Part shown: piece by piece, positions 1 to 4,534 of the stretch | Numbering within the stretch: the stretch's first letter is position 1 | How the letters are laid out: each line of letters starts with the position of its first letter | From: Planctomycetota bacterium | Lineage (GTDB): Bacteria; Planctomycetota; Phycisphaerae; Tepidisphaerales; Tepidisphaeraceae | Reading direction: 5' to 3' | NCBI GenBank assembly: GCA_039182125.1 | Contig: JBCDCH010000037.1 | Span: 1-38,985 of the forward strand | Length of the DNA stretch: 38,985 nt | Translations under genes and position numbers: made by a program | Notes under the pieces: generated by a model | What the model was told of the DNA's origin: nothing | Seen by the model: the letters and a program-made list of their open reading frames with translations, nothing else | Databases searched by the model: none

Positions 1-254
1 GTAGCCAGCCTTCGAATAAGACGGTCTTGAGCGCTTTGCACAGCTCCGACTCGTCGATCTCCACCTTGCTGGAGTACACCCGCGGCGGCAAGCCTACACG
101 ACGGGGCTTCAAGAAGGGCATTTTCACCACGCTGAGCTACTTCATGGCCCACGAGACCCACCACCGCGGCCGGGTGCTTCTTACGCTCAAGGTCAGCGGC
201 AACACGCTCGACAAGAAGACCCAAATGGCGATCTGGGGATGGGATCAGATCTGA
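1..254 (+). CDS. DinB-family protein, C-terminal fragment
   Basis: The reading frame is open from the window edge (codons from base 3) to TGA at 254, so this is the last 83 or so residues of a gene that starts outside the window. The segment FMAHETHHRGRVLLTLKVSG is the classic end of the DinB/YfiT four-helix bundle, in which the HExxHRG histidines contribute to the metal site; the following AIWGWD also fits the family ending. DinB-fold proteins are often metal-dependent thiol transferases or stress proteins, but the substrate here cannot be told. A TTG at 27 is only an internal codon and not needed as a start. Confidence 0.8.
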   Translation, partial: SQPSNKTVLSALHSSDSSISTLLEYTRGGKPTRRGFKKGIFTTLSYFMAHETHHRGRVLLTLKVSGNTLDKKTQMAIWGWDQI

Positions 255-304
255 AGGCGATGGCCGGGCTGCGGGGTGAGTGTTGCCTCGCGGGTCAACA
301 CCCA

Positions 305-1159
305 TCACCGCTTCTCGCGGAACTCGTACGGCGTGGCGTGCTCGACGTGTTCGAGGAAGTCAGCTTTGTAAGCCGCGGCGATTGCCGGCTTGCCCTTGAT
401 GACCAGCAGGTTCTCCGCGTTGTCTTTCTCGGCGGCTTCGCTGAAGTTGAAGCTCCCGGTGATGACCGTCGCATCATCGACGATGATGACCTTGTTGTGC
501 TGGATCTTGTGGGCCGTGTCTACCAGCGTCGTGATGCCCGCGTTGTCGAAGTACCTCGCGTCCGAGTACCCGGCTTGCGCTCCGTCGACGTCGACAACGA
601 TTGTCACGGTGACGCCCCGCTCGTGCGCGTTGCTGAGTGCCGCGGCAATGGGCTTGCTAGTTAGGCGATAGGCCAGCACGTCGACACTTTCGGCCGCGCC
701 GTTGATCTCTTTCACGATTGCGGCCGTGCAGCCGCCGTGTGGCGAAAAGAGCACGGCTACCCCGTCCTCGGTGGCCGACTTCTCTGCGGCCCGCATCTCG
801 GCTTGCCGCTGCTCAATGAACTCTTTCATCCGCCGATCGCGTTCTCGCTTCTCGGCTTCCTCGCGTTTGCGTTGCTCCTCCGCCTGCCGGCGCTCCTCCG
901 CACGTTGACGGTCTCGCTCAGCCTGGCCGTCCGATCGCTGGCCGAAGCTGTTGCCCGGCGTCCGCGGCGGACTGGCGGTACCCGGCCGGCACACGCTACA
1001 GGTGCCGCCTTGCTTCGCGCAGTGCTTGCACCCAGTGCAGTTCTTACACGCCGAGCACGCACCACCGTTGCACCCACGGGCGGCGGCGGTCGGCTCAAGC
1101 GGTGCGGGAGCCGCGGCGAACAGCAACAATGTCAGCACGACGATGAGGTGCCTTCCCAT
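305..1159 (-). CDS. secreted phospholipase D-like nuclease with Cys-rich and coiled-coil N-terminus
   Basis: 284 residues from the ATG at 1159, chosen because it begins directly with a signal peptide (MGRHLIVVLTLLLFAAAPA); the frame stays open upstream but that part reads like noise. Order of parts: signal peptide about 1-27; eight cysteines at 30, 35, 38, 41, 44, 47, 54 and 57, mostly CxxC-spaced, which could bind metal or form disulfides; a Glu/Arg/Gln-rich coiled coil about 76-128; then a single PLD domain about 133-275. The HKD motif is complete (H221, K223, D228) and is followed by GSFNFS at 235-240, as in Nuc-type PLD endonucleases, which work as dimers. Likely an exported phosphodiesterase acting on nucleic acid or phospholipid. 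It is the last gene of a minus-strand group of small membrane proteins. The PLD fold is clear; substrate and location are inference. Confidence 0.85.
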   Translation of the reverse strand: MGRHLIVVLTLLLFAAAPAPLEPTAAARGCNGGACSACKNCTGCKHCAKQGGTCSVCRPGTASPPRTPGNSFGQRSDGQAERDRQRAEERRQAEEQRKREEAEKRERDRRMKEFIEQRQAEMRAAEKSATEDGVAVLFSPHGGCTAAIVKEINGAAESVDVLAYRLTSKPIAAALSNAHERGVTVTIVVDVDGAQAGYSDARYFDNAGITTLVDTAHKIQHNKVIIVDDATVITGSFNFSEAAEKDNAENLLVIKGKPAIAAAYKADFLEHVEHATPYEFREKR

Positions 1160-1224
1160 TCGGAAAAGTGTCGACGCCGACCCCTCCCGGTGCAAGTGCC
1201 TGAAAAGGCGATAGCCCGCCGTGG

Positions 1225-1323
1225 TCACAGTCGATCCAGCAAGCCATGCAACAACTGGCCGGCGATGCCGCCAACCGTGGCGATGACGAACGCGATCAAG
1301 ATGGCCTGTTGCAGCGTGTCCAT
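1225..1323 (-). CDS. possible 32-residue membrane peptide
   Basis: A short frame starting MDTLQQAILIAFVIATVGG that is one hydrophobic helix with a charged, Leu-rich end. It lies 65 bases upstream of the PLD-like gene on the same strand. The ribosome site is weak (GGGAT about 8 bases before ATG). It could be a real single-span small protein, a toxin-like peptide, or chance. The frame is open further upstream but that part is Arg/Cys-rich and does not look coding. Confidence 0.3.
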   Translation of the reverse strand: MDTLQQAILIAFVIATVGGIAGQLLHGLLDRL

Positions 1324-1436
1324 GACTGCGGTTATCCCGCATGACCGTCGTCGTTGCAAACGTCTGCACCGACCCGCGCAGCAAAACGCCCCGGCAAGCC
1401 GCAGGGTGCGACCGGCCGGGGCGGGAACCAAGGGTA

Positions 1437-1682
1437 CTAGGAGCTCGACGTCGGGATTCCCGAATCGTCGGTCACCAAGTGTGCGACGTCAGGCTTTTTG
1501 CCGTAGCGATCGATGTAAGTAGGCGCAGCCGCCGCGGCACCTACCACACATGCAACGAGACCGAGAGCTGCAACCTCAAAAAGCACAGCGGAGGCAGCCA
1601 AGACTAAAGCAACCGCCAGCGCAGGGATTCCTAACGCTCGGAGGAGCTTTGTGGTGCTCTTCTTGATCATCATAACCGTCAT
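1437..1682 (-). CDS. small membrane protein, unknown function
   Basis: 81 residues from the ATG at 1682, chosen because AGGA lies 8 bases before it; an ATG three codons earlier (1691) abuts the AGG directly. After a basic N-terminus (MIKKSTTKLLR) there is one long hydrophobic stretch rich in Ala, Val and Leu, which could form one long or two short helices, and then a polar tail of about 27 residues. No family recognised. It lies between a four-span membrane protein and the PLD-like gene, all on the minus strand, so the genes may be co-expressed. Codon use is less GC-extreme than in the window's housekeeping genes. Confidence 0.5.
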   Translation of the reverse strand: MTVMMIKKSTTKLLRALGIPALAVALVLAASAVLFEVAALGLVACVVGAAAAAPTYIDRYGKKPDVAHLVTDDSGIPTSSS

Positions 1683-1777
1683 ATCGCACATCCTAGCGTG
1701 CTCTTGAGTGAAAAATCGAGGGGAAAATCAAAAAATCCGCCGAAATTCGCTTGACAAATTTCGTGTTATTATTTTGT

Positions 1778-2215
1778 TCACTGCCTACACAGGTAGCTCA
1801 TCCAAATAAGCAATGAAAGTCCAAGCAACGTCCCTAGGACGAGACGCTTTGAAAGCTTTTGCTCTGGCTCGCAAAGCTCCTTTCGGTCCTGAACGTCTGA
1901 CAAGAGGACAAAATAGAACACGAGGCAGAGGAAGCATGCCACGAACACTGATGTACCGGACGGGCCAGCAGGGGCAACTGCACCAGCAGCCGGCGCCGGA
2001 GAAGAAACAGCCCGAAAAAGGCTGGGCAGACCCAGCCCGAGACTGGCAATGCACAAATCTGGGCCGGCATAGAAATAGCATGGGTACCAATGCCGGACAC
2101 CGGAAAGCAATTTCCTGACGATGGTGGTAATGACCAAAATGCCTGCAGGGATCCCGCATGTCGCGACGTATGGCCGCCAATCAATGCTGTTGAAGAGTGT
2201 AATCCAGTCGCCCAT
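1778..2215 (-). CDS. four-span membrane protein, unknown function
   Basis: 145 residues with about four hydrophobic segments: near residues 16-36, 53-70, 88-106 and 126-143. Charged loops separate the last two (DVQDRKELCEPEQKLSKR), as expected of a real membrane protein. No family recognised. Base composition is visibly lower in GC than the flanking genes, and the gene is first in a minus-strand run towards the PLD-like nuclease. Low GC, an orphan sequence and closeness to the 3' end of tRNA-Ala suggest horizontally acquired DNA. The 95 bases between it and the next gene are AT-rich. The start is supported only weakly by a GC-rich purine stretch. Confidence 0.55.
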   Translation of the reverse strand: MGDWITLFNSIDWRPYVATCGIPAGILVITTIVRKLLSGVRHWYPCYFYAGPDLCIASLGLGLPSLFRAVSSPAPAAGAVAPAGPSGTSVFVACFLCLVFYFVLLSDVQDRKELCEPEQKLSKRLVLGTLLGLSLLIWMSYLCRQ

Positions 2216-2351
2216 CCCGGCTCATGGTGTGTACGCAATATCTGGTGTCAAGCGGGGAAATCTTCCATTTCAGCCCCTAAATGGGGGTTTTTGCCGCAAA
2301 ATGCCCCCGCACTGAGAGCTAGGGTGGACACCCTATTTGACACCCAAACCG

Positions 2352-2471
2352 TGCGCAACAGTGCGCAGCTATGCGCGGCGGTGCCGAGTAACCCCGACGC
2401 CCGAACACACATAAACCCCAGCGTGTGCTGGGGTTTATGCGCCGCAATGCGCGACAATGCGTTTCGGTGCC
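2352..2471. repeat. two blocks of three phased TGCGC repeats around a hairpin
   Basis: TGCGC occurs at 2352, 2362 and 2372, exactly 10 bases apart, followed by CGGTGCC ending at 2385. The same layout returns at 2438, 2448 and 2458 (the last as TGCGT), followed by CGGTGCC ending at 2471. Each block is 34 bases, and by eye they match at about 25 of 34 positions. The perfect hairpin 2410-2439 lies between them and shares its last two bases with the second block. One-helical-turn spacing is typical of protein-binding arrays. The block lies 16 bases from the tRNA-Ala 3' end. No gene is credible in 2216-2486. Confidence 0.6.
2410..2439. terminator. perfect 13-bp inverted repeat beside tRNA-Ala
   Basis: CATAAACCCCAGC and its exact complement are separated by GTGT. 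It lies 48 bases beyond the 3' end of tRNA-Ala in the direction of its transcription, so it may end that transcript. There is no clear T-tract on the minus-strand side (TGTGTTCGGG follows), so it may instead be part of the surrounding repeat element. Confidence 0.45.
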
Positions 2472-2486
2472 GGTTAGGCGTTTGCA

Positions 2487-2557
2487 TGGAGCTACCGGGA
2501 TTTGAACCCGGAATACCACCATGCCATGGTGGCGTGATCCCATTTCACTATAGCCCC
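2487..2557 (-). tRNA. tRNA-Ala (anticodon GGC)
   Basis: Full cloverleaf on the minus strand: acceptor GGGGCTA with TAGCTCC including the G3-U70 wobble pair that marks alanine tRNAs, D-stem GTGA/TCAC, anticodon stem CCACC/GGTGG around loop ATGGCAT (anticodon GGC), T-arm CCGGG-TTCAAAT-CCCGG, and discriminator A. CCA is not encoded. The downstream side carries the phased repeat block and accessory genes, a common layout at tRNA integration sites. Confidence 0.95.
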
Positions 2558-2596
2558 GGTGGGGATTTCGTCGCAGCAGCACTGCGGCGGGTCAGG

Positions 2597-2624
2597 ATCA
2601 TAGGTCGGCTCTCGACGGCGTCAA
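2597..2624 (-). promoter_or_regulatory. sigma-70-type promoter of tRNA-Ala
   Basis: On the minus strand TTGACG (2624-2619) and TATGAT (2602-2597) are separated by 16 bases; each box differs from consensus at one position. Transcription would start near 2590, about 33 bases before the mature tRNA 5' end. Confidence 0.65.
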
Positions 2625-2641
2625 TGGCCAGTTTTCCCGGC

Positions 2642-4534
2642 TCACACGGCCGCGGCTTCCATCGGGGGATGGGCGGCGTCGTTGGGGCGACGGCCGGGAA
2701 GGCGGATGGCCACCAGGGTCAGGTCGTCTTCGTGCTCGACACTACCCGCGAAGCGGTCCACCGCCGCCACCGCCCCGTCGGCCAGGGCACGTGGATCGTC
2801 GACATCGATGGGCAGATCCCTGACGAACTTGTCCAGATCGTACCGCTCACCGGCGTCGTTGGCCGCCTCGATGACGCCGTCGGTGTAGATGATCATCGAC
2901 CGACAATCGTTGGACAGGTCATGCACGGTCGTGGGGAAGTCCAAGTCGTCATCGACACCGAGAACGAGCTGCGCGTCGATTTCGAGTTCGTGGTAGCGGC
3001 GGGTGCCGGTGGCGTTGTCGCCTGCCCCGTCCAAATCGCAGACCAGCGGCGCGTGGTGGCCGGCGGAGGCGATCTCGATGGTCTCGGCCTGCGTGTCGAT
3101 CGCGCACAGGAGCATCGTGACGAACTGACCGCCGTAGACCTGGGTGCAGAGTTGCGTGTTGACCTCGGCCATGCATTTGCCGACGTCGCCGCCGATGTCG
3201 GGGCGGGCCATGGTGGTGCGGACGAGCAACTGCGTGGTGGCCATGAGGAACGCCGCCGCCATGCCGTGGCCGGTGACGTCGCCGATGACGATGATCACGC
3301 GGCCGTCACCCAATTCGAACCAGTTGTAGAAGTCGCCGGAGATGTGGCTGGCCGGCGTGTTGACGGCGGCGATTTCGATGCCGGCGATCTCGGCGTCGGC
3401 TTGGGGAAGCCATTTGAGTTGGATGCCGCGAGCCTGGTCGAGCTCTTCCTCGACGCGCTGCAGTTCGCGGTCGAGCATCTCGGTGCGCAGGCGTTCGAGC
3501 TTGCCCCGGCCGCGGATGGCCGTCACCGCCGTCGAAAGCAGGATCGCCACCATCGCCACAACGACGAACAGCGCCCAGAGGACGGTCCCGCCGAAGGTCT
3601 CGCGCACCACCGAGTCGACCCCCGCCAAGTCGCGGGTCATTGCCAGCGACCACACCTGATCCCCCACGCGGACCGGGTAAATCGTGATCATCGCCCCGGG
3701 CATGGTTTCGCCGCCAAGGCTCACCGGCTCGCGGACGACCGAGCCGAAGATCGCCCCGCCCTGGCGCGCCTGAGCGAAGAGTCGTTCGACCTCGCCGCTC
3801 TTGGTCGCCGAGAGGAAGTTCATCCCCTTGAGCTCGGGGTCGGCCGCATCGAGGATGATGCCCTGATCGTTGATCAGCGACGCACCGATCGCACCGTCAG
3901 CGCTGATGGGCTGGAGGAACCGCTGTCGCAACTCCGCGAGACGCACCAGCGAGATCAGGTGGTAGCGTTGATCGCTGCCGGCCGGGACGGCGACGAGCGA
4001 GAACGTTTCTTCAGTGCCGGGCAAGCGCAACGGCGAGGTCACGCGCGGCTCGTCGATCCCTTCGAGCTGCGGGGCCGCCCTGTCGATCAGGCCGCGGATC
4101 TGTGCCGAGCGCCCGAACCGTTCGGGAAACACGCGCAGAAACCGGTCGGTCACCGTGTCCATCACGATCAGGCCGGAGGTGCGGTCCTGTAACTGCAACC
4201 ACATCGGGCTGCTCAGTGCAAAGACCTCGGCCCGGTCGGTGGCGGCCTGGGGAGCGCGATCACGCAGCCGCCCGGGGATCACCGGCCGGCCCTCCTCTTC
4301 GGCACGCCGGAGCAGATTCAGGTTTTCGGAAATGCCAGCGAAGAAATCTTCGAGCCCGGCGGCGGTCTGGCGGGCGATGAGGTTTTGCCGCGTGAGCGTG
4401 TCCTCCTCGGCCTGGAGGCGCGCGGTCAGATACACCTGCCGAGCGCCCAGCGTCACCACGCCCACCACGACGATCAACAAGATCACGTGAAGTGCGAGGA
4501 TGCGGCGGACATAGCGGCGGGTGTCTTGGTCCAT
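2642..4534 (-). CDS. membrane-anchored sensor PP2C/SpoIIE-type serine/threonine phosphatase
   Basis: 630 residues. One membrane span at about 12-32, an extracytoplasmic sensor region at about 35-310 of the kind seen in dCACHE-type receptors, a second span at about 317-340, a short coiled linker (350-375), and a SpoIIE/RsbU phosphatase domain from about 378 to the end. Metal-binding motifs are intact: SGDFY at 399-403, GDVTGHGMAAAF from 418, YTDGVIEA, and the late HEDDLTLV. Such proteins dephosphorylate anti-sigma-factor antagonists in partner-switching pathways; no antagonist or anti-sigma gene is visible nearby, so the target is unknown. The upstream 120 bases show no strong ribosome site. 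Confidence 0.9.
   Translation of the reverse strand: MDQDTRRYVRRILALHVILLIVVVGVVTLGARQVYLTARLQAEEDTLTRQNLIARQTAAGLEDFFAGISENLNLLRRAEEEGRPVIPGRLRDRAPQAATDRAEVFALSSPMWLQLQDRTSGLIVMDTVTDRFLRVFPERFGRSAQIRGLIDRAAPQLEGIDEPRVTSPLRLPGTEETFSLVAVPAGSDQRYHLISLVRLAELRQRFLQPISADGAIGASLINDQGIILDAADPELKGMNFLSATKSGEVERLFAQARQGGAIFGSVVREPVSLGGETMPGAMITIYPVRVGDQVWSLAMTRDLAGVDSVVRETFGGTVLWALFVVVAMVAILLSTAVTAIRGRGKLERLRTEMLDRELQRVEEELDQARGIQLKWLPQADAEIAGIEIAAVNTPASHISGDFYNWFELGDGRVIIVIGDVTGHGMAAAFLMATTQLLVRTTMARPDIGGDVGKCMAEVNTQLCTQVYGGQFVTMLLCAIDTQAETIEIASAGHHAPLVCDLDGAGDNATGTRRYHELEIDAQLVLGVDDDLDFPTTVHDLSNDCRSMIIYTDGVIEAANDAGERYDLDKFVRDLPIDVDDPRALADGAVAAVDRFAGSVEHEDDLTLVAIRLPGRRPNDAAHPPMEAAAV

What the first reader, a model, noticed from the sequence alone, without database searches (positions are those of the whole stretch)
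305..1159. Exported PLD-type nuclease with an eight-cysteine cluster and coiled coil
The HKD motif is complete, but it is joined to a signal peptide, eight closely spaced cysteines (30-57) and a long charged coiled coil. I do not recall this architecture among known Nuc-type PLD enzymes. The Cys cluster could bind metal or cross-link subunits, giving an extracytoplasmic phosphodiesterase held in an assembly. Export would let it act on incoming or extracellular DNA.
Basis: partly seen in the sequence, partly recalled or inferred. Interest (0 to 1): 0.62.

Follow-up and report, generated by a model that had tools for sequence, protein, structure and literature searches.

The report
Exported nuclease fused to cysteine module
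A planctomycete bacterium carries a normal-looking secreted DNA/RNA-cutting enzyme to which a small, eight-cysteine module has been added; the module exists elsewhere as tiny secreted proteins or on SH3-domain proteins, matched no Pfam or NCBIfam model, and was found fused to a nuclease only here.

Summary
The gene is real: minus strand, ATG at 1159, stop at 305, 284 aa. Residues 131-284 are a Nuc-type PLD nuclease domain (Pfam PLDc_2 3e-23; 1byr Nuc Z 24.3, rmsd 1.6) with a complete HKD motif and the downstream Glu. Export is ordinary: by a crude hydrophobic-leader screen, 166 of 176 family frames have one. What is unusual is the N-terminus. The Cys cluster (30-57) is not a one-off: it is a recurring exported module, CxGxxxCxACKNCxxCKHCAKxGGxCGVC, found as standalone small secreted or lipoproteins, on SH3b proteins in Bacteroidota, and in IMG/VR contigs. 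A profile built without the window protein finds it at E = 1e-11, and shuffling its non-Cys residues destroys the score. No Pfam or NCBIfam model matched. None of 175 PLD relatives carries it; 13/296 Bacteroidota, 1/145 Verrucomicrobiota, 0/299 Pseudomonadota and only this one of 343 Planctomycetota genomes have it. The 'coiled coil' is better read as a charged ER/K single helix. Most likely: an exported, dimeric, non-specific nuclease held by a rigid stalk away from a disulfide- or metal-stabilised envelope module. The module's job is inferred, not shown. New domain combination of a known enzyme.

The parts
305..1159 (-). whole gene, 284 aa plus stop
   Evidence: intact frame, codon GC3 0.75-0.83 along its length
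1082..1159 (-). Sec-type signal peptide, residues 1-26 (cleavage site inferred, AxA)
   Evidence: sequence reading; AF2 helix 3-16
989..1072 (-). eight-cysteine module, residues 30-57
   Evidence: leave-one-out profile 39.7 bits, E 9.8e-12 in the window's six frames; 0 of 200 Cys-preserving shuffles reach the real score
764..928 (-). charged ER/K helix, residues 78-132, probable rigid stalk
   Evidence: AF2 pLDDT 91-98 for most of the helix, 77 at its end; salt-bridge excess p 0.006, heptads not significant
308..769 (-). PLD domain of Nuc type, residues 131-284
   Evidence: PLDc_2 3e-23; 1byr 91.5 bits; Foldseek 3.6e-17; VIA-align Z 24.3
446..499 (-). HKD catalytic motif H221-K223-D228-G235-S236-N238
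   Evidence: invariant columns over 65 sequences
413..415 (-). Glu249, invariant in the family, 28 residues after the catalytic His
   Evidence: invariant column

Best explanation
An exported, homodimeric, metal-independent Nuc-type PLD endonuclease that cuts nucleic acids outside the cytoplasm (scavenging and/or trimming DNA at the envelope), attached through a rigid ER/K helix to an exported eight-cysteine module. The module most likely folds through disulfides (second choice: bound metal) and acts as an envelope anchoring, binding or oligomerising unit that positions the nuclease. Shown: domain identities, completeness of the active site, module homology. Inferred: dimerisation, nuclease activity, location, and the module's role.
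For: PLD fold and active site. Nuc and NucT are nucleases of this fold; NucT is dimeric, periplasmic and membrane-associated (PMC5714352). Export as a family trait. Module found right after the signal peptide in standalone proteins, in lipoproteins by their lipobox (L231, L239, L357, L358), in SH3b or SH3b-like proteins (L324 and L351 by Pfam; L353, L356-L358, L360 by resemblance; Hymenobacter plasmid L221) and in proteins with a likely C-terminal membrane helix (L355, L361); these settings all point to the cell envelope. Even, invariant number of Cys in 31 of 31 sequences (the first two Cys were not fixed by the search pattern). ComEC is present in the genome, so DNA uptake is possible.
Against: No experiment. 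No PLD relative has the module, so the fusion rests on one draft genome. Module fold not predictable here. Positively charged groove and dimer contact not modelled. Disulfide versus metal is undecided.
Confidence: 0.55

Rival explanations
1. The module is a metal-binding (metallothionein- or zinc-like) unit that switches or senses, e.g. metal or redox state controlling the nuclease.
For: Eight Cys with CxxC spacing plus a frequently conserved His (C-K-H-C).
Against: Exported through Sec into an oxidising compartment; also found where no enzyme is attached; no structural support.
Confidence: 0.25
2. The enzyme is a phospholipase/cardiolipin hydrolase, not a nuclease.
For: PLD superfamily includes lipases; Zucchini/mitoPLD proteins are among the nearest by sequence and fold.
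Against: Closest by sequence and structure is the nuclease Nuc (91.5 bits, Z 24.3), and by fold NucT is next (Z 23.5), ahead of Zucchini.
Confidence: 0.08
3. The fusion is an accident (chimeric assembly or a decaying gene) without joint function.
For: One genome only; a draft assembly whose gene lies near a contig end; long PLD branch in the tree (1.21).
Against: One intact frame with steady coding composition, signal peptide in front, all catalytic residues kept.
Confidence: 0.12
4. Anti-phage or competitor nuclease: an exported or defence-linked PLD (DrmC-like).
For: Sub-threshold DrmC hits; in Bacteroidota the module gene often sits beside an HSDR_N gene and once near a PLD gene.
Against: DrmC scores far under cut-off (43 of 133 bits); neighbours in the window are a SpoIIE phosphatase gene and a leuS-like ORF; DrmC is cytoplasmic (own knowledge).
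Confidence: 0.1

Closest known systems
Nuc endonuclease (Salmonella / IncN plasmid pKM101; PDB 1byr)
   Same: Single PLD domain, HKD and Glu, exported (own knowledge), 36-38% identity over the domain
   Different: Nuc has no Cys module and no charged helical stalk
NucT of Helicobacter pylori (PDB 6ehi)
   Same: Same fold (Z 23.5), periplasmic nuclease, single PLD domain forming a dimer
   Different: About 25% identity; has a basic extra loop; no Cys module (PMC5714352 for the loop)
Small exported eight-Cys proteins of Bacteroidota and IMG/VR contigs (no Pfam or NCBIfam model found)
   Same: Cys module, 41-66% identity, position right after the signal peptide
   Different: No PLD domain; alone or followed by SH3b or a membrane helix
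DrmC of DISARM
   Same: PLD domain
   Different: Scores under cut-off; no DISARM genes recognised in the neighbourhood looked at; no export

Membership tests
Nuc-type PLD endonuclease | HxK(x)4D(x)6GSxN motif and downstream Glu | tested here: met
   H221, K223, D228, G235, S236, N238, E249; all invariant over 65 sequences
Nuc-type PLD endonuclease | One PLD domain per chain with the Nuc fold | tested here: met
   Z 24.3, rmsd 1.6 A over 149 residues with 1byr
Nuc-type PLD endonuclease | Homodimer sharing one active site | not testable with these tools
   no complex prediction available
Nuc-type PLD endonuclease | Nuclease activity | not testable with these tools
   needs bench assay
Nuc-type PLD endonuclease | N-terminal export signal | tested here: met
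   hydrophobic leader by crude screen, as in 166 of 176 family frames; no dedicated predictor
exported eight-Cys module family | Eight Cys: a first Cys, then C-x2-C-x2-C-x2-C-x2-C-x5/6-C-x2-C, with A, GG and V around them | tested here: met
   leave-one-out profile E 9.8e-12; Cys-preserving shuffles 0/200
DISARM DrmC | Score above the curated cut-off | tested here: not met
   43.4 bits against 133
coiled-coil protein | Hydrophobic heptad core in the helix | tested here: not met
   3 strong hydrophobics in 16 a/d positions, p 0.09 with Ala counted

The most novel reading that the evidence does not exclude
The eight-Cys module is an uncatalogued, horizontally moving envelope-targeting or metal/redox domain that bacteria and their phages use to place different proteins at the cell surface, here a nuclease, giving a tethered or redox-switched extracellular DNase.
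Probability: 0.25. Interest if true: 0.65.

Novelty: new variant of a known kind. Interest (0 to 1): 0.42.

Why it matters
It gives a first handle on an exported Cys module for which no model was found: the fusion to an enzyme with a simple assay (nuclease) makes the module's role directly testable, and the seeds listed here are enough to build a family model. For the Nuc family it shows a new way of positioning the enzyme.

Tried and rejected
Phage origin: no close relative in phages, and none in viral contigs with the single protein. L061 match to residues 81-283 looked like a second copy of the helix but is compositional: a glycerol-kinase-like gene upstream and a stop codon in the PLD frame. 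Chance Cys motif hits: most exact-spacing hits in 294 genomes are low-complexity repeat DNA; only translations in plausible exported ORFs were kept. L049 (Planctomycetota lipoprotein-like ORF with similar Cys spacing, no PLD) not assigned to the module. Pseudomonadota and the 36 genomes of PLD relatives: no module (the tool notes that an empty answer without a positive control shows little). Integration at tRNA-Ala: no direct repeats of the tRNA end found in 1-4000. ARAGORN tmRNA at 2157-2579 not supported by Rfam. Module-alone structure: pLDDT 54, uninformative. Papers: none mention the module sequences; topic searches gave nothing relevant. Tree of the PLD domain: the window's place is not resolved.

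Full report
What is there. The interval 305-1159 holds a 284-aa gene on the minus strand. It begins with a hydrophobic leader, then eight Cys at residues 30-57, a proline/serine-rich linker, a charged helix (78-132) and a PLD domain (131-284). The frame is intact and its codon composition is steady.

The enzyme part is ordinary. Pfam PLDc_2 matches residues 148-270 at 3e-23; the nearest solved chain by sequence is Nuc of Salmonella (91.5 bits). An AF2 model made with 64 relatives is confident over most of the domain and lies on 1byr with Z 24.3 and rmsd 1.6 A, ahead of NucT (23.5) and Zucchini (20.6). His221, Lys223, Asp228, Ser236, Asn238 and Glu249 are invariant in 65 sequences. Relatives occur in many phyla and on plasmids. 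By a crude screen, 166 of 176 frames carry a hydrophobic leader and 31 a lipobox-like motif, so export is a family trait.

The N-terminus is not ordinary for the family. Of 175 relatives' frames, none matches the Cys module profile and none has a comparable charged helix. A PLD frame in L163 has a different Cys-rich insert.

The Cys cluster is a module. A tblastn of the cluster alone met an unannotated Hymenobacter plasmid ORF that goes on into an SH3 protein. A DNA pattern for the Cys spacing plus GG in viral contigs then gave many small exported proteins, and a profile search of genomes gave 13 of 296 Bacteroidota, 1 of 145 Verrucomicrobiota, 0 of 299 Pseudomonadota and 1 of 343 Planctomycetota, the last being this genome. 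Because the search pattern fixed some Cys and GG, the homology was tested separately: a profile without the window sequence finds the window protein with 39.7 bits, E 9.8e-12, while 200 shuffles of its non-Cys residues (Cys kept) scored 11.9 on average and 33.0 at most against 44.2. No Pfam or NCBIfam model covers it. Partners elsewhere: nothing, SH3b, lipobox, or a likely membrane helix.

The helix. Opposite charges four apart are in excess (p 0.006) and a heptad core is not (p 0.09). This points to an ER/K single helix acting as a spacer.

How it most likely works. Exported enzyme, probably dimeric as in this nuclease subfamily (NucT: PMC5714352), cleaving nucleic acid outside the cytoplasm; the module, disulfide- or metal-stabilised, places or assembles it. 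The genome has ComEC and a second, lipobox-bearing Nuc at C15. None of the function steps has been tested.

Limits. The fusion is seen in one draft genome. The module's fold could not be predicted. The tree does not resolve the origin of the PLD domain. The genome sample of each phylum is partial.

Noticed in passing
L351, L352, L356, L357, L358 (Bacteroidota genome loci): Same-strand gene next to the Cys-module gene (directly upstream in four; directly downstream in L356) encodes a ~355-aa HSDR_N (PD-(D/E)XK) protein (Pfam run on L351 and L352, others by sequence resemblance); L360 has a PLDc_2 gene nearby. May be plain gene-order conservation.
   Followed up: partly
L322, L323, L325, L327, L337 (IMG/VR contigs): Standalone Cys-module gene followed at once by a secreted ~180-190 aa protein; the two tested (L322, L327) have no Pfam or PHROG match.
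   Followed up: partly
L329:3375-3767: Exported OB-fold protein (sub-threshold Pfam match) encoded next to a Cys-module gene.
   Followed up: no
L163: Another exported PLD with a different Cys-rich stretch between leader and domain.
   Followed up: no
L017: Exported PLD with a C-terminal Cys/His tail (YHRSECQHL...CKVCKPPE).
   Followed up: no
window 1225-2215, minus strand: Three small ORFs upstream of the gene, beside tRNA-Ala (2487-2557), none with a Pfam match above cut-off; the 145-aa one (1778-2215) has no relative in 25 other genomes of the order.
   Followed up: partly
window 2157-2579, minus strand: ARAGORN tmRNA call, not supported by Rfam, which finds only the tRNA inside it.
   Followed up: yes
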